Notes under the pieces: model-generated | Database searches by the model: none | What the model was told of the DNA's origin: nothing | Seen by the model: only the letters and a program-made list of their open reading frames with translations | Made by a program: the position numbers and the translations under genes | DNA from: Mesorhizobium sp. WSM4904 | GTDB taxonomy: Bacteria; Pseudomonadota; Alphaproteobacteria; Rhizobiales; Rhizobiaceae | DNA: 64,000 nt | Assembly (NCBI RefSeq): GCF_029674545.1 | Contig: NZ_CP121354.1 | Location: 2,551,001-2,615,000, forward strand | Direction: 5' to 3' | In this document: in pieces, positions 27,357 through 61,876 of the stretch | Numbering within the stretch: the first letter of the stretch is position 1 | Layout of the letters: each line of letters begins with the position of its first letter

Positions 27357-28088
27357 TCAGATCGACCAGCCGCCGTCGATATTGTAGGCCTGTCCGGTCG
27401 TATAGGTGGCGCCGGCGAGATAGACTGCAAGATCGGCAATCTCCTCAGCCGTGCCCAGCCTGCCCATCGGCTGGCGGGCGATGAAGGCCGCGCGAGCCGC
27501 TTCGTAGTCGCCCTGCGCGCGCATGCGGCTTTCGAGCGACGGGCTCTCCACCGTACCGGGGCAGATCGCGTTGCAGCGGATGCCCCTCGCGACGTAGTCG
27601 GCCGCGATCGACTTGGTGAGGCCGATCACGGCCGCCTTGGTCACGCCATAGGCGAAGCGGTTCGGCACACCCTTCGGCGCGCCGGCGACCGAGGACATGT
27701 TGATGATCGCGCCGTCGCCGCGCTCCAGCATACCGGGCAGCACGGCGCGGATGGTGCGGATCATGGCGCGCACATTGAGATTGAAGGCGAAGTCGAGGTC
27801 CTCGTCCTTCATGTCGAGGATCGAGCCGGAATGGACGAAGCCGGCGCAGTTGAACAGCACGTCGACGCGGCCGATCTCGGCGAAGGCGGCCTTCACGGCC
27901 TCGTCGTTCAGCACATCGAGCTTGCGGGTTACGATTCCTTTATGGCCGCTGAGCTCGGCCAGCGCGGCTTCGTTGATGTCGGTGGCGTGGACAGTGGCGC
28001 CAGCCTCGGCAAAGGCCAGCGCGCTTGCCCGACCGATGCCCTGCGCCGCCGCGGTTACGACAACGATTTTCCCCGTAAGATCAGCCAT
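27357..28088 (-). CDS. SDR dehydrogenase, probable 2-keto-3-deoxy-L-fuconate dehydrogenase
   Basis: A 243-residue short-chain dehydrogenase with VVTAAAQGIGRASALAFAEAG, HATDINE (Asp favouring NAD), LFNCAGFVH, catalytic Ser in NMSSVAGAPKG and Tyr-Lys in FAYGVTKAAV, ending NIDGGWSI. It sits directly upstream of the fuconate dehydratase gene in the operon. In the non-phosphorylative fucose route this enzyme oxidises 2-keto-3-deoxy-L-fuconate to the 2,4-diketo acid. Assignment rests on close similarity in pattern to that group and on context; it could also act on the sugar itself. Confidence 0.85.
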   Translation of the reverse strand: MADLTGKIVVVTAAAQGIGRASALAFAEAGATVHATDINEAALAELSGHKGIVTRKLDVLNDEAVKAAFAEIGRVDVLFNCAGFVHSGSILDMKDEDLDFAFNLNVRAMIRTIRAVLPGMLERGDGAIINMSSVAGAPKGVPNRFAYGVTKAAVIGLTKSIAADYVARGIRCNAICPGTVESPSLESRMRAQGDYEAARAAFIARQPMGRLGTAEEIADLAVYLAGATYTTGQAYNIDGGWSI

Positions 28089-28106: not shown

Positions 28107-28559
28107 TCAGCCGAGCCGGGGGCGCCGCTCGACGATGTAGATATGATCGGCGGCGAGTACGACTTCGTCGCGCTGGTTGATGACCTCGACGCGCTCGATG
28201 ACGCGCCCTGAGTCCGGCCGTTTCGGATCGTCTTCTTTTGCTGCGATCGTCGTGCGCGTGCGGATCGTGTCGCCGATGAAGACCGGCTTGATGAAGCGCA
28301 GCCTGTCGTAGCCATAGGAGAAGGCCACCGGGTTGATCACGTTCGCCGTCAGGCCGACGCCGACCGAGAAGACGAGCGTGCCATGCGCGATGCGCTGGCC
28401 GAAGGGCGTCGTCTTCATGAACTCGGCGTCTATGTGGTGCGGAAAGAAATCGCCGGTGTGACCGGCGTGGACGACGAAGTCCGTCTCGGTGATGGTGCGG
28501 CCGCTGGTCAGCCGCGACGAACCGATCTCGTAGTCCTCGAAATAGATGACCCGTTCCAT
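28107..28559 (-). CDS. MaoC-family hydratase
   Basis: A 150-residue single hotdog-fold protein. The hydratase motif is clear: [30 protein letters not shown], with Asp and His in the expected places. Enoyl-CoA hydratases of this type act on CoA thioesters, so its presence in a sugar operon is unexpected. Part of its sequence ([19 protein letters not shown]) is almost the same as in the MaoC protein at 39671-40225, so they are paralogues. It lies 19 bases after the SDR and eight bases before the Gfo/Idh gene. Function in this operon unknown. Confidence 0.85.
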
Positions 28560-28567
28560 CTCGTGCC

Positions 28568-29641
28568 CTACGGTTTTGCGGCGAGCGGCGTCGCCGGCGC
28601 GGCGCTCGATTTATAGGCGGCCTCGACCAGCGCCATCGTGTTCCAGGTGTCCTCGACGGAACTGACCAGCTCGGCGTCCTCGCCAGACGCGAAGCGCTGG
28701 ACATTGGCCATGCGCCCGACAAAGGCGTCGGGGAACCATTCGCCAATGAGCGGCACGCCGACCCAGTCGGAGCCGCCTTTGGGATAGATCTCGAGCACGT
28801 CGGGCTCGCCGCGCGGATAGTCGAGATTGAGGCCGAGCTTGACGTAGGCGGCGCCCTCGGTGCCGCAGACGCGGAACTCGCAGGCCTGATGCCGCCGGCC
28901 GAACTTGTGGTCGTGGTTGATCGAAAGCGCGCAGCGCACCGTGTCGCCATAGTCGAGGATGGCGCTGGTGCGTGTCTGCGCGACCTGGTGATCGGGGTGA
29001 CCGAGCGTCTTGGCATGCACGCCCTTCGGGTCGCCCAACAATTGCCGGATCAGGTCGAGATAGTGGATCGAGTGCATGGCGATCTCGACGCGCGGCGCCG
29101 TGAGCAGAAATTCCCAGAGCTGCCACGGCGTCGCGAGCGCCAGCCAGGCGTCGAAGTCGACGACCTCGCCGAGCCAGCCCTTGGCGATCGCGTCCTTCAG
29201 CGCGAGCATCATCGGCGCGAAGCGGAGCTGGAAATTCACGGCAGCCTTGAGTTTCTTGGCGCGGCAGATTTCGAGGATCTCGGTCGCCTCGCCGAGATAG
29301 TTGCCCATCGGCTTCTGGATCAATGCGACCGCATCGTCGGGCAGAGCCTTCAGCACCTCGGCGTGCCGGCCGGGCGGCGTCGCCAGATCGAAGATCGCGT
29401 CCTTGACGGCGGCCGCCTCGTCCACCGAGCGGAACGCCGTCACGCCCCATTGCTCAGCCAGTTTTCCGGCCTTGGCATGGTCGGGATCGTAGAGGCCGGC
29501 AACCGGAAAGCCGGCCCTGCGATAGGCCGGAAAATGCGCGTCGCCGACGATCGAGCCGGCACCGAAGGTGACGATTGGGCGCGGCTTCGCAGGAGCCGGC
29601 CAGGACTGCGCCAGCGATGCGGGATCGAAAGCGTCAGTCAT
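28568..29641 (-). CDS. Gfo/Idh/MocA-family oxidoreductase
   Basis: A 357-residue NAD(P)-dependent oxidoreductase with the Rossmann motif [22 protein letters not shown] at the start, [11 protein letters not shown] in place of the usual EKPxA, and a C-terminal substrate domain. Members oxidise sugars or inositol-type rings. ATG 29641 overlaps the end of the mutarotase by eight bases; a longer start at 29656 is possible. It may be the missing sugar dehydrogenase of the pathway, since no other dehydrogenase for the first oxidation is visible in the operon. That is inference. Confidence 0.85.
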
Positions 29642-29963
29642 GGTGGAAGACTTCATCCATCATCGCCCACCATTCGCCTTCCTGCCTGGTCGGCAAAGGC
29701 TGCTGGCAAGGCATGCAGACCGCCCACCATTCCTGGGTCGTGGGGTCCGCGGCCATCTTGGCCATGTCGGCGGCGTAGTCGGTGCCGTGATACTCGAAAT
29801 AGGAGAACAGCAGGTTTTCCGGCCGCTTGAGGTAGATCGAGTAGTTCTTGATGTTGCAGGCCGAGATCATCTTGAGCACGTCCGGCCACACGGCGGCGTG
29901 CAGGCGCGCATATTCCTCGACCTTCTCCGGCTTGAGGCCGAGCACCATGCCCATTCGCTGCAT
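29634..29963 (-). CDS. L-rhamnose mutarotase-family protein (RhaM type)
   Basis: A 109-residue mutarotase that interconverts alpha and beta anomers of a 6-deoxyhexose. Seen: the active-site His22 in EEYARLHAAVWPDVL, the tyrosines IYLKRPENLLFSYFEYHG, and the tryptophan pair WWAVCMPCQQPLP. The start ATG 29963 has GGAGG seven bases upstream. RhaM-type proteins act on L-rhamnose; relatives act on L-fucose, and the neighbours here favour L-fucose or a similar sugar. It overlaps the Gfo/Idh gene and follows the enolase-superfamily gene by one base. Confidence 0.9.
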   Translation of the reverse strand: MQRMGMVLGLKPEKVEEYARLHAAVWPDVLKMISACNIKNYSIYLKRPENLLFSYFEYHGTDYAADMAKMAADPTTQEWWAVCMPCQQPLPTRQEGEWWAMMDEVFHHD

Positions 29964-29964
29964 C

Positions 29965-31086
29965 TCAATCCCTCCGTTCGGTGACGGTGACGTCGAATTC
30001 GGCGATGCTGCGCGACTTGAGCGCATCGAAATCCCAGTCGATGCCGAGGCCCGGCTCGCCCGGCGCCAGCGCATGGCCGTTTTCGATCACCATCTTCTTG
30101 CCCGTCAACTCGTCCAGCTGCGGAATGTATTCGACATATTTGCCGTTCGGCACCGCGCAGGCCAGGCTGACATGCAGTTCCATCAGGAAATGCGGGCAGA
30201 TGGGCATGTCGAAGGCTTCCGCCATATGCGCCACCTTCAGCCAGGGCGTGATGCCACCGATGCGGCCGACATCGACCTGCACGACGTTGCAGCCGCCCTT
30301 CTGCATATATTCGCGGAAATGACGGATCGAATAAAGCGACTCGCCGACGGCAATAGGCGTGGCGGTCGAATTCGACAGCCGTACATGGCCGTCGATGTCG
30401 TCGGCCGGCAGCGGCTCCTCGATCCAGGCGAGATCGAGATCGCGCAGCCGCTCGGCGCGCCTGATGGCCTCGTCGACGGAAAAACCCTGGTTGCAGTCGG
30501 TCATGATCTCGTAGCCGTCGCCGACAGCCTTTCGCACAGCCGAAAGCCGGGCGAAGTCCTCCGAGCCGTGCGGCTTGCCGATCTTGACTTTGGAGCCGGT
30601 GAAGCCTTTCGCCTTGGCGGCTGACGCGTCCTCGACGAGCGCTTCCATCTCGATGTGCAGCCAGCCGCCTTCGGTGGTGTAGAGCGGACAGCGGTCCTTG
30701 GCGCCGCCGGCAAGCTTCCAGAGCGGCAGTTTCTGCTTCCGCGCCCGCAGATCCCAGAGCGCGGTGTCGATCGCGGCGAGCGCGATGGCCGTGATGGCGC
30801 CGATCGTCGTGGCATGGGTCGCGAATTCGAGATCGTGCCAGATGGCCTCGATCCGGTCGGCATCCTCACCGATCAGGCGCGGCGCCAGGTGATCGGCCAG
30901 AAGCCGCATCACCGAAGAGCCGCCGGTGCCGATCGTGTAGGAATAGCCCATGCCGACCGCGCCGTCGGCGTCGGTGATGGTGACGATCGGGGTTTCCTGG
31001 CTGACGAAACTCTGGATCGCGTCGGTGCGCTTCACCTTCGGCGCCAGATCGACCATTGCAAGCTCGACCTTCTCGATCTTCGCCAT
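29965..31086 (-). CDS. Mandelate racemase/muconate lactonizing-family enzyme, acid-sugar dehydratase
   Basis: A 373-residue enolase-superfamily enzyme. Metal ligands and bases are in place: KVK pair (K166, K168) in GSKVKIG, D197 in MTDCNQG, E223 in WIEEPL, E249 in VGES, and the D272-H299 dyad (VQVDVGRIGG and ICPHFLMELH). It is distinct from the fuconate dehydratase 2.6 kb away, so the operon carries two acid-sugar enzymes. The substrate cannot be read; galactarate/talarate or an aldonate are the usual options for this subgroup. It lies between the ABC ATPase and the mutarotase with very short spacers. Confidence 0.85.
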   Translation of the reverse strand: MAKIEKVELAMVDLAPKVKRTDAIQSFVSQETPIVTITDADGAVGMGYSYTIGTGGSSVMRLLADHLAPRLIGEDADRIEAIWHDLEFATHATTIGAITAIALAAIDTALWDLRARKQKLPLWKLAGGAKDRCPLYTTEGGWLHIEMEALVEDASAAKAKGFTGSKVKIGKPHGSEDFARLSAVRKAVGDGYEIMTDCNQGFSVDEAIRRAERLRDLDLAWIEEPLPADDIDGHVRLSNSTATPIAVGESLYSIRHFREYMQKGGCNVVQVDVGRIGGITPWLKVAHMAEAFDMPICPHFLMELHVSLACAVPNGKYVEYIPQLDELTGKKMVIENGHALAPGEPGLGIDWDFDALKSRSIAEFDVTVTERRD

Positions 31087-33059: not shown

Positions 33060-33956
33060 TCACCACTCCGCGCCGATCTGGGTGCGCGCCGCGGCGAGCT
33101 TCTTGAAGAAATAGACGGTGAAGACGATCGACAGCAGGATCGAAAAATATGCCATCGCATTGGCGACGCCCATGCGCGCGTCGCTGTAGGCGGTGCGCGC
33201 GACCAGCGTCCACAAAAGTTCCGTGCGGCCGGCAGGGCCGCCGTCAGTCATAATCTTGACGATGTCATAGGCGCGCGCGACGTCGAGCGAGCGGATGGTC
33301 ATGGCGATATAGGCGAAGGGCATGATGAAGGGCCAGGTCACATAGCGGAAGGTCTGCCACGGCGTGCAGCCGTCGACGCGCGCCGCCTCGACCGGCTCCT
33401 TCGGCATGGCGAGCAGGCCGGCCAGGATCAGGATCGCGAAGATCGAGGTCGACGACCAGATCTCGGCGATGGAGATGGCGATGAAGGCGAGATGGCCTTC
33501 GATCAGCCAGGGGATCGCGTCCTGCGTGATGCCCAGCGACTGCAATGCGTTGTTCACCAGCCCGATATTGTCGTTGAACATGAACTTGAACTGGAAGCCG
33601 ACAAGGATCGGCGAGAACATCATCGGGAACATCATGATGGTGCGCAGCACCCGCTGGCCGCGGCTGGCCTTCTCGACCAGCAGCGCCAGGCCGAGCCCCA
33701 GCAGCATTTCGAGATTGAGCGCTATGGTGAGCAGAAGCACGGTGCGGCCGAAGGCCCACCAGAAATTCGCGTCGGACAGAATGTTGCGATAGTTGCGCAG
33801 CCCGATGAAGGTGAAGAAGGTCTCCGGCCGCGTCAGCCTGAACGGCGTGAAGCTGGAATAGAAGGACAGGCAGAGCGGCACGACCACCACGGCCGCCAGC
33901 ACGAGCACGGCCGGCAGCAGAAGAAGGGTTGGCGCGGAAAGCCGCTTGGCCGTCAT
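33060..33956 (-). CDS. Carbohydrate ABC transporter permease (MalF type)
   Basis: A 298-residue permease beginning MTAKRLSAPTLLLLPAVLVLAAVVVVPLCLSFYSS, with six predicted membrane segments and the EAA loop PVEAARVDGCTPWQTFRYVTWPFIMP. ATG 33956 follows TTGGAACAT (GGAA six bases upstream); the longer frame to 34034 includes non-coding sequence and a hairpin. It is preceded in the operon by the binding-protein gene across about 210 bases that hold two hairpins (34021-34107), which suggests that permease expression is lower than that of the binding protein. Confidence 0.9.
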   Translation of the reverse strand: MTAKRLSAPTLLLLPAVLVLAAVVVVPLCLSFYSSFTPFRLTRPETFFTFIGLRNYRNILSDANFWWAFGRTVLLLTIALNLEMLLGLGLALLVEKASRGQRVLRTIMMFPMMFSPILVGFQFKFMFNDNIGLVNNALQSLGITQDAIPWLIEGHLAFIAISIAEIWSSTSIFAILILAGLLAMPKEPVEAARVDGCTPWQTFRYVTWPFIMPFAYIAMTIRSLDVARAYDIVKIMTDGGPAGRTELLWTLVARTAYSDARMGVANAMAYFSILLSIVFTVYFFKKLAAARTQIGAEW

Positions 33957-34020
33957 GCAATGTTCCAAAATTGCTTGCGCGGCCGGCGATCCAATCGCAG
34001 GGCGGCCGCATCGGTCAAAA

Positions 34021-34048
34021 GCGGCGCCGGCCACAAGACCGGCGCCGC
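34021..34048. terminator. GC-rich hairpin between binding-protein and permease genes
   Basis: GCGGCGCCGG (34021-34030) pairs with CCGGCGCCGC (34039-34048), a perfect 10-base stem over an eight-base loop. It lies between the binding-protein gene and its permeases, together with repeat copy B. No T-run follows; an attenuator or message-stabilising hairpin is more likely than full termination. Confidence 0.6.
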
Positions 34049-34167: not shown

Positions 34168-35481
34168 TCAGAGCTTGCCGGCGTCCTCGAGAATCTGCGT
34201 CGCCTTGGCGGCAGCATCGTCGAGCGCCTGCTTGGAAGTCTTGTCGCCGAGGATGGCGGCCTGGAGCTCCGGATAGACGGCGTTGGAGATCTCGATCCAC
34301 TCCGGCGTCTGCGGCACCGGGAAGGCGTTCTTGGCGGCTTCCTGGAAGGCCTGCAGCACCTCGGTCTTGTAGGGATCGGACTTCGCCTGCTCGAGGTCCC
34401 ATTCCCAGACCTTGGTGCGGGTGGGCAGCGGGCCGGCGGCTGCCTCCAGCTTCTGGCTGTCCTCATTGGTCAGCCACCAGACGAGCGAGGCGGCGGCTTC
34501 CTTGTTGGCGCAGTTCTCGGTCACCGAGAAGCCGTGCGCGCCGGACCAGCCCGAGCGCTTGCCGGACGAGCCCTTCGGCTGGACCTTGACGCCGACATTG
34601 CCTGCAATCTTCGACGACTTCGGGTCGTTGAAGAAGCCAGCCCAGCCCGGCCAGTCGAGGTTGATCGCCACGGTGCCGGAAGCGAAGCCCTGGCCGAGAT
34701 CGTCCCACAGATAGTTGGTCGTGCCGGCCGGCACGGCCTTGGCCTTGTAAAGCTTGACGAACCAGTCGAGCGCCTTGACGCCGGCGTCCGAGTTGAAGGC
34801 CGGCTTGCCGTCCTTGTCGAGATATTCGCCGCCGTCGGCAATCACCATCTCGTAGAAGCGGCCGTTGATCGCCTCTTCCTTGCCGGCATATTGCGTGCCG
34901 TAGAAATCGGGCGGGCTGGCGAAGAATTCCGCCTGCTGGGCCATCTCGTCGAAGGTGTCCGGGGGAGCGAGGTCCTCGCCGTATTTCTCCTTATAGGCCT
35001 TCTTCTTGGCTTCGTCCTGATAGAGGCTCTTCTGGTAGTAGAGCGCCGAGACGTCGAACTGCGCGCGCGGCAGCATCACCAGCTTGCCGTCTAGCGTCCC
35101 CGCCGCGATGTTGGCCGGGACGAAGGCGTCGATCTCCTCCTTAGGCAAGAGCTTGGCGAGATCGGTGTAGATGCCCGGATATTGCGGCGCGAACGAGGTG
35201 TGGTTGGAACCGACGCACCAGGTGATCGAATTGGAGGCGATGTCCGACTTGATCTCCTTGTCGAGATCGAAGTGATTCTTCTTGGAGATGACGTTGACCT
35301 TGGCGCCGGTCGCCTTCTCCCACTCGCCGATGCGCTCGTAGAGCTTTTCGTATTGCTGGCCGCCGATCAGCTTGGCGTCGATGGTGACGCCGGGAAACTT
35401 GCCCGGCAGGTCGGCCGCGAATGCAGCGCCCGATGCCATGAGCAATGCGCCGGCGGCGACGCCGGAAAGCAGTCTGTTCAT
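34168..35481 (-). CDS. Sugar ABC transporter substrate-binding protein
   Basis: A 437-residue family 1 solute-binding protein. It has a clear signal peptide (MNRLLSGVAAGALLMASGAAFAA, cleavage after AFA). The mature protein begins DLPGKFPGVTIDAKLIGG. Typical features: KYGEDLAPPDTFDEMAQQAEFFASP, WDDLGQGFASGTVAINLDWPGWAGFF and LVWWLTNEDSQKLEAAAG. It binds the sugar in the periplasm for the two permeases and the UgpC-type ATPase downstream. GGAGGAATTC lies just before the ATG. First gene of the ten-gene operon, divergent from the IclR regulator across 157 bases. Confidence 0.92.
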   Translation of the reverse strand: MNRLLSGVAAGALLMASGAAFAADLPGKFPGVTIDAKLIGGQQYEKLYERIGEWEKATGAKVNVISKKNHFDLDKEIKSDIASNSITWCVGSNHTSFAPQYPGIYTDLAKLLPKEEIDAFVPANIAAGTLDGKLVMLPRAQFDVSALYYQKSLYQDEAKKKAYKEKYGEDLAPPDTFDEMAQQAEFFASPPDFYGTQYAGKEEAINGRFYEMVIADGGEYLDKDGKPAFNSDAGVKALDWFVKLYKAKAVPAGTTNYLWDDLGQGFASGTVAINLDWPGWAGFFNDPKSSKIAGNVGVKVQPKGSSGKRSGWSGAHGFSVTENCANKEAAASLVWWLTNEDSQKLEAAAGPLPTRTKVWEWDLEQAKSDPYKTEVLQAFQEAAKNAFPVPQTPEWIEISNAVYPELQAAILGDKTSKQALDDAAAKATQILEDAGKL

Positions 35482-35638: not shown

Positions 35639-36424
35639 GTGCAGGACGACGAGGAAGACCGCTATCGCGCGCCGGCTCTGGACAAGGGGCTGGATATCCT
35701 GGAGCTGCTCGCTAGCGTCGACGGCGGCCTGACGCAGGCCGAGATCGCCAAGCGGCTCGACCGCAGCCCGAACGAGTTCTACCGGATGCTGGACCGGCTG
35801 GTGAAACGCGGCTACGTCACACGCCCCGACGGCGACCGTTACTCGCTGACGCTGAAGCTCTTCGGGCTCGGCCAACTGCATGCGCCGGTGCGCAGGCTGG
35901 TTTCCTACGCCACCTCGATCATGCGCGAGCTGGCCGAAACCGCATGGCAGGCGAACCAGCTCGTGGTGTTCGATCGCGGCAGCGCCGTCGTCATCGCGCA
36001 GCAAGAAGCGCCGCGATACTGGGGAATCTCCATCCGCGTCGGCTCGCATATCAGCCTGTTCGACACCGGGTCGGGACATGTGCTGCTGGCCTTCCGCTCG
36101 CCGGAAGAGCGCGAGATGATGATCGCCGAACACTTGCGCAGCAACGAGGAGATGAAGCTGTCGCCCGACTTCTTCGCCCGCCTCGACCAGGTGCGCGACC
36201 GCGGCTATGAGATGATGGCTTCGCTGCAGACGGCCGGCGTCTACAATCTGTCGGCGCCGGTGCTCGGTCCCGACGGGCGCGGCATCGCCGCGCTCACCAT
36301 ACCCTACATCACCCTGGTCAACGCGCCAGCCGCGCCCGATATCACCAGGACCATCACGCTGCTCCAGGCGGCGGCGGCTCGTCTGTCGCAACTTGCCGGA
36401 TCGGATGTGAGGCCCAAGGAGTAA
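35639..36424 (+). CDS. IclR-family regulator of the deoxysugar operon
   Basis: A 261-residue IclR regulator starting at GTG 35639 with GAGAGG upstream. The winged helix-turn-helix is ALDKGLDILELLASVDGGLTQAEIAKRLDRSPNEFYRMLDRLVKRGYV (about residues 12-60), and the GAF-like effector domain fills the rest (SHISLFDTGSGHVLLAF). It is clearly paralogous to the IclR protein at 61028-61876: both share DILELLAS-type and SLKLFELA/SLTLKLFGLG segments and the order of the motifs. Divergent from the sugar operon and followed by the fuconolactonase gene after 75 bases. Likely controls both. Effector unknown. Confidence 0.9.
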   Translation: MQDDEEDRYRAPALDKGLDILELLASVDGGLTQAEIAKRLDRSPNEFYRMLDRLVKRGYVTRPDGDRYSLTLKLFGLGQLHAPVRRLVSYATSIMRELAETAWQANQLVVFDRGSAVVIAQQEAPRYWGISIRVGSHISLFDTGSGHVLLAFRSPEEREMMIAEHLRSNEEMKLSPDFFARLDQVRDRGYEMMASLQTAGVYNLSAPVLGPDGRGIAALTIPYITLVNAPAAPDITRTITLLQAAAARLSQLAGSDVRPKE

Positions 36425-37371: not shown

Positions 37372-38517
37372 TTAGCCGGCGACGGCCGGCGCGAAACTCT
37401 CGCGGAACAGGCGGTTGATGTCGGCAACGACACGGCTGGCGTCCTGCCGGCCGGCAAGGCCCGCGTTGAGGCAGTCGGATGCCACCTGCTGGAACGCCAT
37501 GTAGCCGTCGTGACGCGGGCGCACCCAGGCGCCCTCCAGCGTCGCCCGCGTGGCGCGATAGAAGTCGCCGGTCGCGGCGTTGACGGCCGCATCCTCCCAG
37601 GCGGCGGCATGGCCCGGCTGGCCGCCGGCGGCGGCATAGGGTCCGCGCTGCACGTCGCCGCTGGCGATCCAGTAGGCGAAGTCGATTGCTTGCCGGCCGG
37701 CAGCGGAGAAGGCCGAGACGGCAATGCCGGTGCCGCCGAGCGCGGAGCCGACCGGGCCGTTGCCGCCCACGGACGGCATGTCGCAAAAGAAAAGCCGGTT
37801 CGGACGGAAACCGGCCGTCGCGTAAGGCACATAGCCATAGATCAGCGGCGCGCAGGCGATGCGCGAGCCGGCCTCGGCCATCTTCTCGAACACCGCGATC
37901 GGGTCCATCGTCAGGCATACGGGGTCGACCAGCGCCGCGATCTCGCTTAGCATCTCGATGACGGTTTCGCCGGTCTCGGGATCGACCAGATCGCCCGGGC
38001 CTTCGACGGCGCATGGCCGGCCGAGATCGGCCGCAAGCGTGAAGAAGCACATCAGCGAGTGCGGCGGCCTGAGCGGCAGGAGCACGCGGCCCTGTTCGGC
38101 AAGCTCCAGCACCTCGGTCCAGATCGCCGGCGCGGCCTCGATCAGATCGGGCCGCCAGGCCTGGACCTGGGTCGCGGCATCGATCGGAAACGCCCATTGC
38201 CGCCCTTGCCAGGTATAGCTCGGATAGGATCGACCGACGCTTGCCCTCGCCAGCGCGTCGCGTTCGGCCTCGCGGCCCGGCACGTCGAGCGGCGCCAGGC
38301 ATTTTTCGGCGGTGATCTGGCCGACATGCGGGTGATCGATGACGATCAGGTCATAGGCGCGGGCGAGTTCTTCCACCGGGAAGGATTCGAAATCCTGCAG
38401 CGAGCGTTTCTCCCATTCGATCGAAACGCCGGTCTTTTCCTGCCACAGCCTGGAACAGGCGACCATCGGATCGTAGCCGCGCGGATGGTTCCAGGTCATG
38501 CCCTTGAGCGACGTCAT
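37372..38517 (-). CDS. Leaderless solute-binding-protein-like protein (paralogue 1)
   Basis: A 381-residue protein with the overall layout of an ABC extracellular solute-binding protein but without a signal peptide: the start [21 protein letters not shown] has no hydrophobic core or charged n-region. Binding-protein features: EELARAYDLIVIDHPHVGQI, RQWAFPIDAATQVQAWRPDLI and GGTGIAVSAFSAAGRQAIDFAYWI. It is clearly homologous to 59886-61028 (same opening TW/AWxH, same DLIV/DLVVFDHPxxG and ALPIDAA.HVASYRPDL). No permease or ATPase is adjacent. The start overlaps the CoA-transferase stop (ATGA), so the two are coupled. A cytoplasmic sugar- or CoA-ligand-binding role is inference. Confidence 0.75.
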   Translation of the reverse strand: MTSLKGMTWNHPRGYDPMVACSRLWQEKTGVSIEWEKRSLQDFESFPVEELARAYDLIVIDHPHVGQITAEKCLAPLDVPGREAERDALARASVGRSYPSYTWQGRQWAFPIDAATQVQAWRPDLIEAAPAIWTEVLELAEQGRVLLPLRPPHSLMCFFTLAADLGRPCAVEGPGDLVDPETGETVIEMLSEIAALVDPVCLTMDPIAVFEKMAEAGSRIACAPLIYGYVPYATAGFRPNRLFFCDMPSVGGNGPVGSALGGTGIAVSAFSAAGRQAIDFAYWIASGDVQRGPYAAAGGQPGHAAAWEDAAVNAATGDFYRATRATLEGAWVRPRHDGYMAFQQVASDCLNAGLAGRQDASRVVADINRLFRESFAPAVAG

Positions 38518-39674
38518 AGACCGAATTCCTCGCGGATTTTTGCGCTGTGCTCGCCGACGCGGGGTGCCGCCTGCTCGACCTTGGCGCGCACGCCGTCGAT
38601 CCTCAGCGGCGACCGGGTGGTGTGGATCGCCACGCCGTCCTCGCGCGTCACCGTCTGCAGGAGGTCGAGCGCCGTGAAGCCGTCGCTCTCCAGCACCTCC
38701 TTCCAGTTCAGCACCTTGGCGCACCAGATGTCGGCGGGCTCGAGGATGGCTAGCCATTCGTCGACCGATTTCTGCGCGATGCGCTGGGCGATGATCGCCT
38801 TGATCTCGTCGCGGGCGGTGAACCAGGTCGACGGCTGGTCGCGGTAGGGCGCCAGCGCCTCGATCTCGAGCAGGTCGGCAAGCTTCGGGATCGGTGTCAT
38901 GGCGATCGCCAGGAAACCGTCCTTGGCCGGATAGACGCCGTAGGGTGCCGCCAGATAGGCATGGGCGCTGCGGAAGGACGAGCGGCGCGGCAAGCGCCGG
39001 CCATCGTTGAGGTGGGTCGTCAGGACCTCGAACTGGAAGTCGATCAGCGCCTCGAACAGGCTGGTCTCTACGTGGCCGCCTTGGCCGGTGATGCCGCGCC
39101 GGACCAGCGCTGCAAGGATGCCCTGCGCGCAGGCCGCGCCCGCCAGCATGTCGGCGATCGCCAGGCCGAACGGCACCGGCCCCTGATCTTCGTCTCCGTT
39201 CAGCCACATCACGCCGGAGCGCGCCTGGGCGAGCAGGTCCTGGCCGGGGCGCTTCACCCACGGGCCGTCCTCGCCATAGCCGCTGATCGAGGCATAGACC
39301 AGGCGCGGGTTGAGCGAACGCACATGCTCGTAGTCGAGGCCGAGCCGCTCGATGACACCGGGGCGGAAATTCTGGATCAGCACGTCGGCTTTCGCGAGCA
39401 GCCCGCGCAGCGCTTTCAGGTCGTCCTCGTTCTTCAGATCGACGGCAAAACTTTCCTTGGCGCGGTTGATGGCGTGGAAGATGGTGGAATCGCCGCCGAT
39501 CTCGGTGTCGCTGAGATAAAGCCGGCGCGAGAGGTCGCCGCCATCGGGCCGCTCGATCTTGATGACGCGGGCGCCGAGGTCCAACAGCCTCAGCGAGCAG
39601 TAAGGTCCCGACAGGAACTGGCTCATGTCGACGACGACAAGGCCGGACAGCGGCAGGTCGGCGACCATCGTCAC
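38514..39674 (-). CDS. CaiB/BaiF-family CoA-transferase
   Basis: A 386-residue type III CoA-transferase, which moves CoA between acyl groups through aspartyl anhydride intermediates. Family features: [36 protein letters not shown] at the start, the catalytic Asp175 in [18 protein letters not shown], and the C-terminal [11 protein letters not shown] and AEEWL-like region [16 protein letters not shown]. It is between the MaoC gene and the leaderless binding protein, with four-base overlaps at both ends, so all three are one translational unit. Substrate unknown; the neighbours suggest an acid derived from a sugar. Confidence 0.9.
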
Positions 39675-40225
39675 TTCTCCGTCTTGCCGGCGAAGTCGGC
39701 CGGATTCTTGTACTTCACGGTCTGCAGGTGCTCGCAGTAGAGGACCAGCTCGCCTTCGCCCTTGAACACCTCGTAGCTGGCGCGGATCAGCCCCATCTCA
39801 TGATAGCGGGGTTTCTTTTCCATGTTGGTGCGGATCGAATAGATGGTGTCGCCGATGAAGACCGGCTTGATGAAGCGGAGCTTGTCGTAGCCGTAGGAAA
39901 AGGCGTTGACGCAATTGGTGGCGACAAGGCCGAGCCCGGCGGAGAACACGAACGCGCCGGCGACCAGGCGCCTGCCGAAAATGCCTTCGCGCTCGGCGAA
40001 CATCTGGTCCTGCACGTAAGGGTGGATGTCGAGCACCAGAGTGTTGAAGAGATGGCTGTCGCCTTCGGCCATGGTGCGCCGGAGCGAGCGGATCTTCTGG
40101 CCGACCGGCCAATCCTCATAAAACCAGTTTTCGGCGTTCCACACCGGCAGCTCGGCGTGATCGGCCGGCATGTCGGAAGGGTGTGTCGAGGCGACGCCGA
40201 CGGTGGGCGGGAAGCTGGTCATCAT
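39671..40225 (-). CDS. MaoC-family protein
   Basis: A 184-residue hotdog-fold protein with an N-terminal extension of about 30 residues. The core shares [21 protein letters not shown] with the MaoC protein in the deoxysugar operon. The hydratase signature is altered: [18 protein letters not shown], and IFGRRLVAG carries AG where HG is usual, so catalytic competence is uncertain. It is the first gene of the three-gene unit with the CoA-transferase and the leaderless binding protein. ATG 40225 has weak ribosome signals; the promoter region is at 40226-40340. Confidence 0.82.
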
Positions 40226-58583: not shown

Positions 58584-59768
58584 ATGGAACAGTGCTGGCG
58601 TTGGTACGGCCCGGACGATCCGGTGACACTCGATCATGTCAAGCAGGCGGGCGCGACCGGCGTCGTCTCGGCCCTGCACGACATCTATGACGGGCGCGCC
58701 TGGCCGCTTGAAAATATCCTGGAGCGCAAGCGGATCATCGAGGCGGCGGGGCTGACCTGGTCGGTCGTCGAGAGCATCCCCGTCCACAATTCGATCAAGA
58801 TCGGCTCGCCGGAACGGCTTCGTTATGTCGGCTTCTACAAGGATACGATCCGCGCGCTGGCGAAGGCTGGCATCGCGACGATCTGCTACAATTTCATGCC
58901 GGTAGTCGACTGGACCCGCACGGATCTGGCGTACCGGCTTCCGACGACCGGTTATGCATTGCGCTTCGACGCCATCGATTTCGCGACTTACGACCTGTTC
59001 GTACTGAAGCGCAAGAATGCCGAGGCCGGCTACACATCCGCCCGCATCGCCGCAGCGCAAGCGCGGCTGAAGGAACTCGGCGAGGAGAAGATCGACAGGA
59101 TAGAGCGCAACCTCATCGCCGGCCTGCCCGCCACCGAGCGCAGCTACGACCGCGACAGTTTTCGCGAGGCGCTGGCCGAATACGATGCGATCGGGCCGAA
59201 GGAATTGCGCGAAAACCTCGCCTGGTTCCTGCGCGAGATCATTCCGGTCGCCGAACAGGAAGGGGTGCGCATGTGCATCCATCCCGACGACCCGCCCTTC
59301 TCGCTCTACGGCTTGCCGCGCATTGTCTCGACGGCCGAGGACGCGCGCTTCATCCTCAATGCCGTCGACAGTCCGGCAAATGGGCTGACGTTCTGCACCG
59401 GCTCCTACGGCACGCGCGCCGACAACGACATCGTCGCCATGGTCAAGGAATTCGCCGACCGCATCCATTTCGTCCATCTGCGCAACATCACCATCGAGGA
59501 TGACGGCTCCTTCTATGAAGCCGAGCATCTCGAGGGCGGCACCGACATGGCGCATGTCATCCTTGCCCTGATGCAGGAGGAGGCGCGGCGTCGGAAGGAG
59601 GGCCGCGCCGATTGGCGCATTCCGATGCGGCCGGATCACGGGCATCTGCTCGCCGACGACATCGGCAAGACCAGGATCAATCCCGGCTACTCGCTGATCG
59701 GTCGGCTGAAGGGTCTCGCCGAACTGCGCGGCATCATGCGGGCCGTCGAGCGGTTTGGCCTGGCTTGA
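58584..59768 (+). CDS. uxuA: D-mannonate dehydratase (UxuA)
   Basis: A 394-residue metal-dependent dehydratase that converts D-mannonate to 2-keto-3-deoxy-D-gluconate in the hexuronate pathway. Diagnostic motifs present: [30 protein letters not shown] and [10 protein letters not shown]. Length is normal for the family. AAGGAAACG precedes the ATG. It is alone in the rightward arm, divergent from the GntR operon. The operator pair is just upstream. Its product enters the KDG pathway; kdgK and kdgA are not in the window. Followed after 118 bases by the leaderless binding-protein-like gene. Confidence 0.94.
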
Positions 59769-59885: not shown

Positions 59886-61028
59886 ATGACAAGACTGCGC
59901 GGTCTTGCGTGGGATCATCGACGTTGCTGGGGTCCGCTCGACGCCAGCGTCGGGCCGTATTGCGCCGCCAATTCCGGCCTCGAAATAGAATGGGACCGCC
60001 GCAGCCTCTACGAATTCGGCGAGGGCGCGCTCGGCCCGGTGCTCGGCGCGTATGATCTGGTCGTGTTCGACCATCCCTTCATCGGCGACATCGCGCAGGA
60101 CGAGCTGATGGTGCCGTTCGACGACTATCTGTCGGCCGAGCAGATCCGCTTCTTCGAGCGGGATTCGGTCGGTCCGTCCTGGCGGTCCTACGGCAGGAAT
60201 GGTCGCCAATGGGCATTGCCGATCGATGCCGCCTGCCACGTCGCCTCATATCGTCCGGACCTCCTGGAGCGCTACGGGCCGGTGCCCAATATGCATGAAG
60301 AAGTCGTCGCGCTCGGCCGGCTCGCGCGCAAGGACGGCAAATGGCTCGGCCTGCCCTTCGTGCCGACGGATGCCATGTGCATGCTCCTGACGCTCACGCA
60401 CCCGCAGGAGAACGGCGAGCAATTCATCGCAACGGACATGATCGAGCGGGCAATCGCGCAACTGCGCGAGCTGGCGGCGCTGTCGCATCCAAGCTCGTCC
60501 AGATGGAATCCGATCCGCTGCTACGACCATATGGTCGCGCATGACGACGTGGTCTATGTGCCGTTCGCCTTCGGCTATGTGAATTACGCCTCGAAGACCG
60601 ACCGGCCGTATCTGCGCTTTGCCGACGTGCCGACCGCGCGATCGGCCGGCGCCTTGCTCGGCGGCGCCGGCATCGGCATCAGCGCCCAGTCGAAACACAA
60701 GCAGGAAGCGATCGACTACGCGCTGTTCCTGTGTTCGCCCGAGTATCAGCGCGGTGACTATGTGAGATCGGGCGGCCAGCCGGGATCGCTGGCGGCCTGG
60801 AAGGATGCGAACGTCAACGGCCTTTCAGGCGATTTCTTCAATTCCACGCTGCGCACGATCAGCTCGTCCTATTTGCGTCCGACGCATCCGGGCTTCATCG
60901 CCTTCTTCCGCGAATGCGCGCCGCGTGCGGCCGCCGCCATCGCCGGCGACATCGCGCCGGCCGAACTGGCCGAGCACGTGAACCGCCTCTACCGCCAGAC
61001 CAGGCAACCGGAACGGAGCGTCGCGTGA
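59886..61028 (+). CDS. Leaderless solute-binding-protein-like protein (paralogue 2)
   Basis: A 380-residue homologue of 37372-38517. It starts MTRLRGLAWDHRRCWGPLDA, in register with the other protein, and again has no signal peptide. Shared features: YDLVVFDHPFIGDIAQDELM, RNGRQWALPIDAACHVASYRPDLL, GGAGIGISAQSKHKQEAIDYALFL, and QPGSLAAWKDANVNG near the end. GGAGG lies 12 bases before ATG 59886. The TGA overlaps the IclR start (TGATG), so here it is coupled directly to a regulator. No permease or ATPase belongs to it, although a separate ABC importer follows. A cytoplasmic ligand-binding partner of the IclR protein is a possibility. Confidence 0.75.
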   Translation: MTRLRGLAWDHRRCWGPLDASVGPYCAANSGLEIEWDRRSLYEFGEGALGPVLGAYDLVVFDHPFIGDIAQDELMVPFDDYLSAEQIRFFERDSVGPSWRSYGRNGRQWALPIDAACHVASYRPDLLERYGPVPNMHEEVVALGRLARKDGKWLGLPFVPTDAMCMLLTLTHPQENGEQFIATDMIERAIAQLRELAALSHPSSSRWNPIRCYDHMVAHDDVVYVPFAFGYVNYASKTDRPYLRFADVPTARSAGALLGGAGIGISAQSKHKQEAIDYALFLCSPEYQRGDYVRSGGQPGSLAAWKDANVNGLSGDFFNSTLRTISSSYLRPTHPGFIAFFRECAPRAAAAIAGDIAPAELAEHVNRLYRQTRQPERSVA

Positions 61029-61876
61029 TGGCAGCCGGCATTGCCGAAACGATCGAGGAAGGCGAAAGCGGCCGCAACGGATATCGCGTGCCGGCGGTGG
61101 AGAAGGCGCTCGACGTCCTGGAGTTCATGGCCTCCAGCGCCGAAGCGCTGACCCAGACCGAGATCGCGACCGGCCTCGGGCGATCCATCCACGAAATCTA
61201 CCGCATTCTGCTTCTGTTGGAGAAGCGGGGCTACATCTTCCGCACGCAATCGGATCGCTTCCGGCTGTCGCTGAAGCTGTTCGAGCTGGCGCATATGCAT
61301 CCGCCAGTGAACCGGCTGATCGAATGCGCGTTGCCGGTGATGCGCGAACTCACCACCAATGCCGATCAAAGCTGCCACTTGGTGGTGCGCGAGGGACAGA
61401 ACGCGCTGGTGGTGCTGCAGATCGATTCACCGCTGCCGATGCGCTACTCGGTCGCGCTGGGATCGCATTTCCCGATCCTCGAGACCAGTTCCGGCGCGGT
61501 GCTGCTTGCCCATTCAAGCCGGGCCGAGCGCGACCGCATCGTCGAGCGCATCGTGGCCGCCGGCGAAGGCCAGGGAACGCGGGAAGAAATCGAGGCGCGG
61601 CTGAACGAAGTGGCCAGGCTCGGCTACGAGATGCGCGCGTCGCTGGCCGTCGAAGCCTGCACCAACATCTCCATGCCGGTGCGCGATCACACCGGCGCCG
61701 TCATCGCGGCGCTCACGGTGCCGCTCTTGCCGCAGAAGGCGGCGCGCTTCGACCGTGGGACCGTCTTCGAACGAGCCCGCGCCGCAGCCGAGAAGATATC
61801 GGCGGCACTCGGCTGGGGTGAATCCACTTCGTTACGTGCCGACCCGGAACGGCGGGACTACCCGTTCAGCGACTGA
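61028..61876 (+). CDS. IclR-family regulator coupled to the leaderless binding-like protein
   Basis: A 282-residue IclR regulator with an N-terminal 20-residue extension. DNA-binding part: VPAVEKALDVLEFMASSAEALTQTEIATGLGRSIHEIYRILLLLEKRGYIF; effector domain: SHFPILETSSGAVLLAHSSRAERDRIVERI and ISMPVRDHTGAVIAALTVPLLP. Clearly homologous to the IclR at 35639-36424. The ATG shares its A with the preceding TGA, a coupled pair. It lies before an ABC importer operon (61903 on), so it may control uptake. Effector unknown. Confidence 0.9.
   Translation: MAAGIAETIEEGESGRNGYRVPAVEKALDVLEFMASSAEALTQTEIATGLGRSIHEIYRILLLLEKRGYIFRTQSDRFRLSLKLFELAHMHPPVNRLIECALPVMRELTTNADQSCHLVVREGQNALVVLQIDSPLPMRYSVALGSHFPILETSSGAVLLAHSSRAERDRIVERIVAAGEGQGTREEIEARLNEVARLGYEMRASLAVEACTNISMPVRDHTGAVIAALTVPLLPQKAARFDRGTVFERARAAAEKISAALGWGESTSLRADPERRDYPFSD

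What the first reader, a model, noticed from the sequence alone, without database searches (positions are those of the whole stretch)
37372..40225. Three-gene operon joining a leaderless binding-protein-like protein to CoA-transferase and MaoC
MaoC, CaiB/BaiF and the solute-binding-like gene overlap by four bases at both junctions, so they form one translational unit. The binding protein has no signal peptide and no transporter partner, although its fold is that of an ABC binding protein. This hints at a cytoplasmic ligand-binding or scaffold protein for a CoA-linked sugar-acid pathway, which I do not recognise as a described system.
Basis: partly seen in the sequence, partly recalled or inferred. 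Interest (0 to 1): 0.75.

Follow-up and report, generated by a model that had tools for sequence, protein, structure and literature searches.

The report
Leaderless sugar-binding protein with CoA-transferase
A protein with the shape of a sugar-importer's binding protein appears to stay inside the cell and is made together with a CoA-transferase in sugar-breakdown gene clusters of bacteria from three phyla, which suggests that an importer part has been re-used in metabolism.

Summary
On the minus strand MaoC, CaiB/BaiF and a 381-aa solute-binding-protein homologue (SBPL) overlap by four bases at both junctions. SBPL looks leaderless: strand beta-1 begins at residue 3, and 232 of 240 listed homologues carry the beta-1 motif by residue 15 (5 have longer N-termini without a strongly hydrophobic stretch; 3 lack the motif and were not judged). 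The model (pLDDT 93) matches CUT1 sugar-binding proteins over its whole length. Of 31 clusters at 70% identity, 23 lie next to CaiB and 26 within 10 kb; the family spans Pseudomonadota, Actinomycetota and Bacteroidota. In two Bacteroidota loci SBPL sits with CaiB and an L-rhamnose symporter, and no ABC permease or ATPase was found. In the window a complete importer with its own leadered binding protein lies beside it. Residues in the presumed pocket loops are nearly invariant. I propose a cytoplasmic sugar-acid-binding partner, or an SBP-derived enzyme, working with a dedicated CoA-transferase. A second leaderless SBP family occurs in similar clusters. Binding, catalysis and complex formation are untested. 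Ten text searches listed no description. Against: 4 of 31 clusters have no CaiB within the DNA held, and distance correlation does not single out CaiB.

The parts
37372..38517 (-). SBPL: leaderless SBP_bac_8 protein, 381 aa
38514..39674 (-). CaiB/BaiF family III CoA-transferase, 386 aa
   Evidence: PF02515 E 1.3e-102; Asp175 invariant in 13 of 13 aligned
39671..40225 (-). MaoC-like protein, non-canonical (catalytic His position is Val)
   Evidence: PF01575 E 1.7e-11; D/V at the D..H positions in 76 of 76 orthologues
38514..38517 (-). 4-base overlap, CaiB stop / SBPL start (ATGA)
   Evidence: same kind of overlap in 96 of 101 places with CaiB directly upstream, redundant set
39671..39674 (-). 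4-base overlap, MaoC stop / CaiB start (GTGA)
35639..36424 (+). IclR-family regulator
   Evidence: PF01614 and PF09339
36500..37336 (+). amidohydrolase_2; best NCBIfam model L-fucono-1,5-lactonase, below its cut-off
34168..35481 (-). importer SBP with leader
   Evidence: N-terminus MNRLLSGVAAGALLMASGAAFAA; no Pfam hit, weak NCBIfam hits to sugar SBPs
33060..34034 (-). importer permease 1 (ORF as listed; true start likely internal)
   Evidence: PF00528
32191..33213 (-). importer permease 2 (ORF as listed)
   Evidence: PF00528
31089..32186 (-). importer ATPase
   Evidence: sequence; orthologues in relatives, annotated UgpC-like
29965..31086 (-). enolase-superfamily, dehydratase-like
   Evidence: genes in the same place annotated mandelate racemase/muconate lactonizing family
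28568..29656 (-). Gfo/Idh/MocA oxidoreductase
   Evidence: genes in the same place annotated so
28107..28559 (-). second, canonical MaoC, 150 aa
   Evidence: D/H motif in 60 of 60 orthologues
27357..28088 (-). SDR oxidoreductase
   Evidence: genes in the same place annotated SDR
59886..61028 (+). SBPL2: second leaderless paralogue, 38% identical
   Evidence: PF13416 E 1e-8
58584..59768 (+). UxuA (mannonate dehydratase family) before SBPL2
   Evidence: PF03786 E 7.7e-126
61028..61876 (+). IclR-like regulator after SBPL2
   Evidence: label by similarity

Best explanation
SBPL is a CUT1-type solute-binding protein that lost its leader and was re-used in the cytoplasm. Shown by sequence comparison: no recognisable leader, SBP fold, nearly invariant residues in the loops that line the cleft in homologues, overlap with the gene of a CoA-transferase of particular clades, and occurrence with several kinds of transporter. 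Inferred: it closes around a sugar acid (aldonate or 2-keto-3-deoxy acid) made by the neighbouring dehydrogenase, lactonase and dehydratase, and presents it to, or gates, CaiB, which makes the CoA thioester; a MaoC or crotonase-type partner then acts on the acyl-CoA. Location and non-import role about 0.9; functional partner of CaiB about 0.75; non-catalytic binding and delivery rather than catalysis about 0.5.
For: Beta-1 motif by residue 15 in 232 of 240 listed homologues; 5 longer N-termini have at most a mean hydropathy of 1.64 over 10 residues; 3 without the motif not judged. Start position and upstream stops. CaiB adjacent in 23 of 31 clusters at 70% identity, within 10 kb in 26; for the window's SBPL2, one of the misses, a CaiB lies 6.4 kb beyond it just outside the window. 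CaiB may come before or after SBPL. Two Bacteroidota loci have SBPL-CaiB-CaiB-second SBP with RhaT and no annotated ABC permease or ATPase in 21 kb, and none by BLAST against my reference set. Of 385 alphaproteobacterial genomes, CaiB at 55% identity or more occurs in 3 (the own genome included), all with SBPL within 1.5 kb; the next best CaiB is 39%, and 0 of the 27 such loci fetched have SBPL within 1.5 kb (the remaining listed matches were not fetched). The label 'SBPL-linked' needs 2 changes on a 61-row CaiB tree against about 20 in shuffles, 0 of 500 as low. W9, H11, R13, D61, H62, D113, Y229, Q300 and R333 are at 94% or more in 37 diverse members. CaiB Asp175 kept in 13 of 13.
Against: 4 of 31 clusters have no CaiB within the DNA held (L117, L147, L148, L149; L147 and L149 are cut by contig ends); there SBPL sits with UxuA, SMP-30, SDR or enolase-family genes. 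Mirror-tree correlation is not specific: CaiB 0.77, IclR 0.73, Gfo/Idh 0.82, MaoC 0.37. Three of the 6 SBPL genomes lack the close CaiB. The loci are a convenience sample, rich in Mesorhizobium. Known family III CoA-transferases work without such a partner (recalled). No complex could be modelled. The ligand is unknown.
Confidence: 0.5

Rival explanations
1. SBPL is an enzyme: an SBP-fold catalyst (for example a dehydratase, epimerase or lyase) for one step of CoA-linked sugar-acid breakdown.
For: Charged and aromatic residues nearly invariant across three phyla and several cluster types, while 5 non-redundant importer SBPs from such loci share no invariant D, H, W, Y or Q. Precedent: cyclohexadienyl dehydratase evolved from an SBP (PMC7683729, abstract and passages). 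In L117 it overlaps enzyme genes and no CaiB was found near.
Against: No catalytic motif known; the dehydrogenase, lactonase and dehydratase steps have candidates already in the cluster. The importer-SBP control is only 5 sequences.
Confidence: 0.3
2. SBPL is a cytoplasmic sensor that reports a pathway intermediate to the IclR/LacI regulator of the cluster.
For: IclR-, LacI- or GntR-like genes lie in many of the clusters.
Against: Pfam shows no DNA-binding or signalling domain in it; the gene it overlaps is CaiB, not the regulator; IclR proteins usually bind their effectors themselves (recalled).
Confidence: 0.1
3. SBPL is an importer subunit whose leader was missed or that is exported in another way.
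For: SBP fold and Pfam; an importer lies nearby in many loci (60 of 80 close loci hold a CUT1 permease; 28 of 80 have CUT2-like genes right behind it).
Against: Start analysis, homologue N-termini, importers with their own leadered SBPs, Bacteroidota loci without a permease or ATPase gene found.
Confidence: 0.05
4. SBPL buffers or protects a reactive sugar-acid or lactone intermediate without touching CaiB.
For: Conserved residues; loci without CaiB.
Against: Overlap with CaiB of particular clades in most clusters.
Confidence: 0.05

Closest known systems
CUT1 sugar-binding proteins (TMBP 1eu8, LpqY 7ape, SmoF 7ofy)
   Different: No leader; Thr263 stands where TMBP has the Trp of LGGW, and Ala115 where it has the Asp of YIDAG, in the profile alignment (the ligand role of those residues is recalled); linked to CaiB rather than to a permease of its own
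Cyclohexadienyl dehydratase and other SBP-fold enzymes
   Same: An SBP fold that left transport (PMC7683729, abstract and passages)
   Different: That enzyme derives from amino-acid SBPs; here the parent is a CUT1 sugar SBP and catalysis is unknown
Family III CoA-transferases (CaiB, formyl-CoA transferase, benzylsuccinate CoA-transferase)
   Same: PF02515, conserved Asp, PDB relatives 10uh, 4ed9, 9br6, 9fn0
   Different: Encoded with an SBP-like partner; no NCBIfam equivalog cut-off reached
Cytosolic single-domain proteins hit by SBP Pfam models
   Same: A survey says that such proteins exist; around 1% of automatically retrieved proteins were predicted cytosolic (PMC9602780, passages)
   Different: The passages that I saw name no CoA-transferase-linked family

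Membership tests
ABC importer solute-binding protein | SBP fold and Pfam SBP domain | tested here: met
ABC importer solute-binding protein | N-terminal export signal | tested here: not met
   no dedicated predictor was run
ABC importer solute-binding protein | cognate permease that has no other SBP | tested here: not met
   the window's importer has its own SBP; so does the CUT2 importer of L020; no permease or ATPase found in L150, L151
ABC importer solute-binding protein | delivers ligand for import | not testable with these tools
   needs experiment
Family III CoA-transferase (CaiB) | PF02515 over the whole length | tested here: met
   1.3e-102, profile 1-366 of 366
Family III CoA-transferase (CaiB) | catalytic Asp | tested here: met
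   Asp175 invariant in 13 of 13, aligned with an Asp of 10uh; its catalytic role is recalled
Family III CoA-transferase (CaiB) | CoA transfer activity and substrate | not testable with these tools
   needs assay
MaoC-type enoyl-CoA hydratase (this operon's MaoC) | catalytic Asp-His pair (motif recalled) | tested here: not met
   D/V in 76 of 76 orthologues; the second MaoC has D/H in 60 of 60
SBP-fold enzyme (CDT-like) | type II SBP fold | tested here: met
   (matches are CUT1 sugar SBPs; their class is recalled)
SBP-fold enzyme (CDT-like) | catalytic activity | not testable with these tools
   needs assay

The most novel reading that the evidence does not exclude
Sugar-importer binding proteins were recruited at least twice (SBPL and the second leaderless family) into the cytoplasm as obligate partners, or catalytic components, of family III CoA-transferases in an undescribed CoA-dependent route for 6-deoxy-sugar acids. 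Aldonyl-CoA made by CaiB would be dehydrated by a MaoC or crotonase-type enzyme, and the binding protein supplies sugar-acid specificity.
Probability: 0.35. Interest if true: 0.85.

Novelty: new variant of a known kind. Interest (0 to 1): 0.68.

Why it matters
A large protein family commonly annotated as 'extracellular solute-binding protein' appears to be neither extracellular nor a transport part. If so, automatic transporter counts include it wrongly, the evolution of a binding protein into a metabolic partner can be studied with many natural examples, and a sugar-acid pathway that uses CoA is waiting to be assigned. The gene overlap and the neighbours give direct, cheap tests.

Tried and rejected
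Misplaced start or hidden leader: rejected. SBP of the neighbouring importer: rejected, that importer has its own SBP. I first guessed that the transporter behind SBPL in relatives was a Liv-type system; it is CUT2-like. Mirror-tree correlation was tried as evidence for CaiB and is not specific. A first CaiB tree held only 4 of the 9 own CaiB genes because of my motif filter; it was redone with all of them and with 27 further decoys. With 7 unlinked CaiBs the SBPL-linked ones were one clade (98/95); with 34 they fall in two groups, one of them weakly supported (88/44), so a single exclusive origin is not claimed. Literature: ten searches listed no paper whose title or abstract describes a leaderless SBP with a CoA-transferase; I saw listings only (in one search, 20 of 266 papers), and opened three papers by passages: PMC8407117 (not relevant), PMC7683729, PMC9602780. 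S. meliloti locus tags were guessed and not confirmed, so no expression data are used. A CaiB-SBPL complex model, signal-peptide prediction, a second structure job and the third protein search were not run.

Full report
Observation. On the minus strand the window holds MaoC (39671-40225), CaiB/BaiF (38514-39674) and a 381-aa SBP homologue, SBPL (37372-38517); each pair of neighbours shares four bases. Pfam gives MaoC_dehydratas, CoA_transf_3 and SBP_bac_8. The genome is Mesorhizobium-like by its best homologues, 6.65 Mb in one contig.

Leader. An open frame upstream of SBPL runs through CaiB, so a mechanical ORF call starts at 39261. In 117 of 121 places from the window and relatives (a redundant set) a beta-1 motif could be located; a start codon lies 0-9 residues before it in all 117, and an in-frame stop lies within 10, 20 and 30 codons upstream in 8, 26 and 38. 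In the AF2 model (pLDDT 93.2, pTM 0.91) strand 1 spans residues 3-9. Two protein searches gave 4480 and 2411 hits, of which the best 120 each are listed. Of these 240, 232 have the motif by residue 15, 5 have it at 16-36 with no strongly hydrophobic stretch before it (highest 10-residue mean 1.64), and 3 (335, 371 and 228 aa) lack the motif and were not judged.

Family boundaries. Three dissimilar queries (window SBPL, window SBPL2, Jannaschia SBPL) each found 145 plasmid records with 154 places at E limits of 1e-20, 1e-12 and 1e-5; a fourth query (L142) found 148 and 157 at 1e-5, the three more being labelled Rhizobium (not looked into). So there is a gap between this family and ordinary SBPs in that collection. 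It occurs in Pseudomonadota, Actinomycetota and Bacteroidota; 6 of 385 alphaproteobacterial genomes are positive, the own one included, and 18 of 398 of the phylum sample (profile search, own included).

Neighbours. In the 80 closest genome loci CaiB is adjacent in 79, MaoC lies upstream in 66, and a CUT1 permease is in the locus in 60; the one without CaiB has only 413 bases upstream (L073). In 28 of 80 CUT2-like ATPase and permease genes follow SBPL, and in one more another ATPase. In 121 places CaiB is directly upstream in 101, with the same 4-base overlap in 96, and directly downstream in 8 (this set repeats some genomes). Reduced at 70% identity, 31 clusters remain: CaiB adjacent in 23, within 10 kb in 26, a MaoC or crotonase hydratase within 10 kb in 26. 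The window's SBPL2 counts as a miss in that tally; its CaiB lies 6.4 kb further on, outside the window, as in three relatives where the cluster reads UxuA-SBPL2-IclR-CUT2 genes-SDR-CaiB-ECH. Four clusters have none: L117, L147, L148 and L149, of which L147 and L149 are cut by contig ends.

Transporter independence. SBPL clusters carry CUT1, CUT2, TRAP, MFS or RhaT transporters. In Persicobacter and Rufibacter the order is SBPL-CaiB-CaiB-second SBP-Gfo/Idh and further on MaoC, with RhaT and a SusD-type gene. No ABC permease or ATPase is annotated in the 21 kb (that gene table is incomplete), nor found by BLAST with my reference set. That is the clearest evidence against a transport role.

Dedicated CoA-transferase. 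Of the same 385 genomes, only three have a CaiB with 55% identity or more to the window's (100, 61 and 55%); the next is 39%. SBPL is within 1.5 kb in exactly these 3 of the 30 CaiB loci fetched (further listed matches were not fetched, among them the own genome's SBPL2-cluster CaiB). Three other SBPL genomes (G231, G163, G071) lack that CaiB. On a 61-row CaiB tree the label 'SBPL-linked' needs 2 changes, against about 20 in shuffles, and 0 of 500 shuffles reach it; the main group of 19 is supported 100/100, the second of 8 only 88/44. With only the 7 unlinked CaiBs of the own genome as decoys, the linked ones were one clade (98/95). Asp175 is invariant in 13 of 13. Correlated distances do not single out CaiB (0.77, against IclR 0.73, Gfo/Idh 0.82, MaoC 0.37).

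A second leaderless family. In Persicobacter, Rufibacter, Croceibacterium, two unnamed alphaproteobacterial genomes (L137, L139) and the archaeon Halostagnicola another SBP_bac_1 protein sits in similar clusters and appears leaderless (Pfam for four of them). The three bacterial ones compared have no BLAST match to SBPL at E 1e-3 but are about 24-29% identical to the window's importer SBP over part of the length. In Persicobacter it overlaps its CaiB. For Rufibacter the annotated start is internal, and no leader is seen between it and the upstream stop. For Halostagnicola the frame is open for 95 codons upstream, so its start rests on the annotation and on the likeness of its N-terminus. The window's genome has 10 weak hits to it, the best (25%) being the leadered importer SBP; the other hits were not checked for leaders.

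Pathway. Neighbours across relatives are L-rhamnose mutarotase, Gfo/Idh oxidoreductase, a fuconolactonase-like amidohydrolase, enolase-family dehydratases annotated L-fuconate dehydratase, SDR, FAH hydrolase, and alpha-L-fucosidase in three annotated regions (L114, L150, L173). I infer breakdown of 6-deoxy sugars such as L-fucose or L-rhamnose. Where CoA enters is not known. One possibility is CaiB making an aldonyl-CoA that a hydratase dehydrates to a 2-keto-3-deoxy-acyl-CoA; this is inference only.

Judgement. The finding is real and broader than described, and the importer-subunit reading fails on tested features. What SBPL does is open between a delivery or gating partner of CaiB (favoured) and an SBP-fold enzyme. 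It is new to me, and ten text searches of an open-access library that lacks many subscription papers listed no description.

Noticed in passing
window 59886-61028 (+): Second leaderless SBPL paralogue (38% identity) beside a UxuA-family gene and an IclR-like regulator; a CaiB lies 6.4 kb downstream of it, beyond the window.
   Followed up: yes
window 39671-40225 (-): The operon's MaoC has Val where hydratases have the catalytic His, in 76 of 76 orthologues, while the second MaoC nearby keeps it in 60 of 60.
   Followed up: partly
L150 13445-14677, L151 13670-14797, L114 3423-4610, L173 8001-9236: A second, apparently leaderless SBP family in CoA-transferase clusters, including a haloarchaeon; three of them are weakly related to the leadered importer SBP of the window cluster.
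   Followed up: partly
L020 11170-15809, like genes in 28 of 80 close relatives: CUT2-like transporter genes lie between SBPL and the amidohydrolase in about a third of close relatives and are absent there in the window.
   Followed up: partly
L116, L138, L140, L141: CaiB plus crotonase-type hydratase pairs lie several kb from SBPL in clusters where SBPL is not adjacent to CaiB.
   Followed up: no
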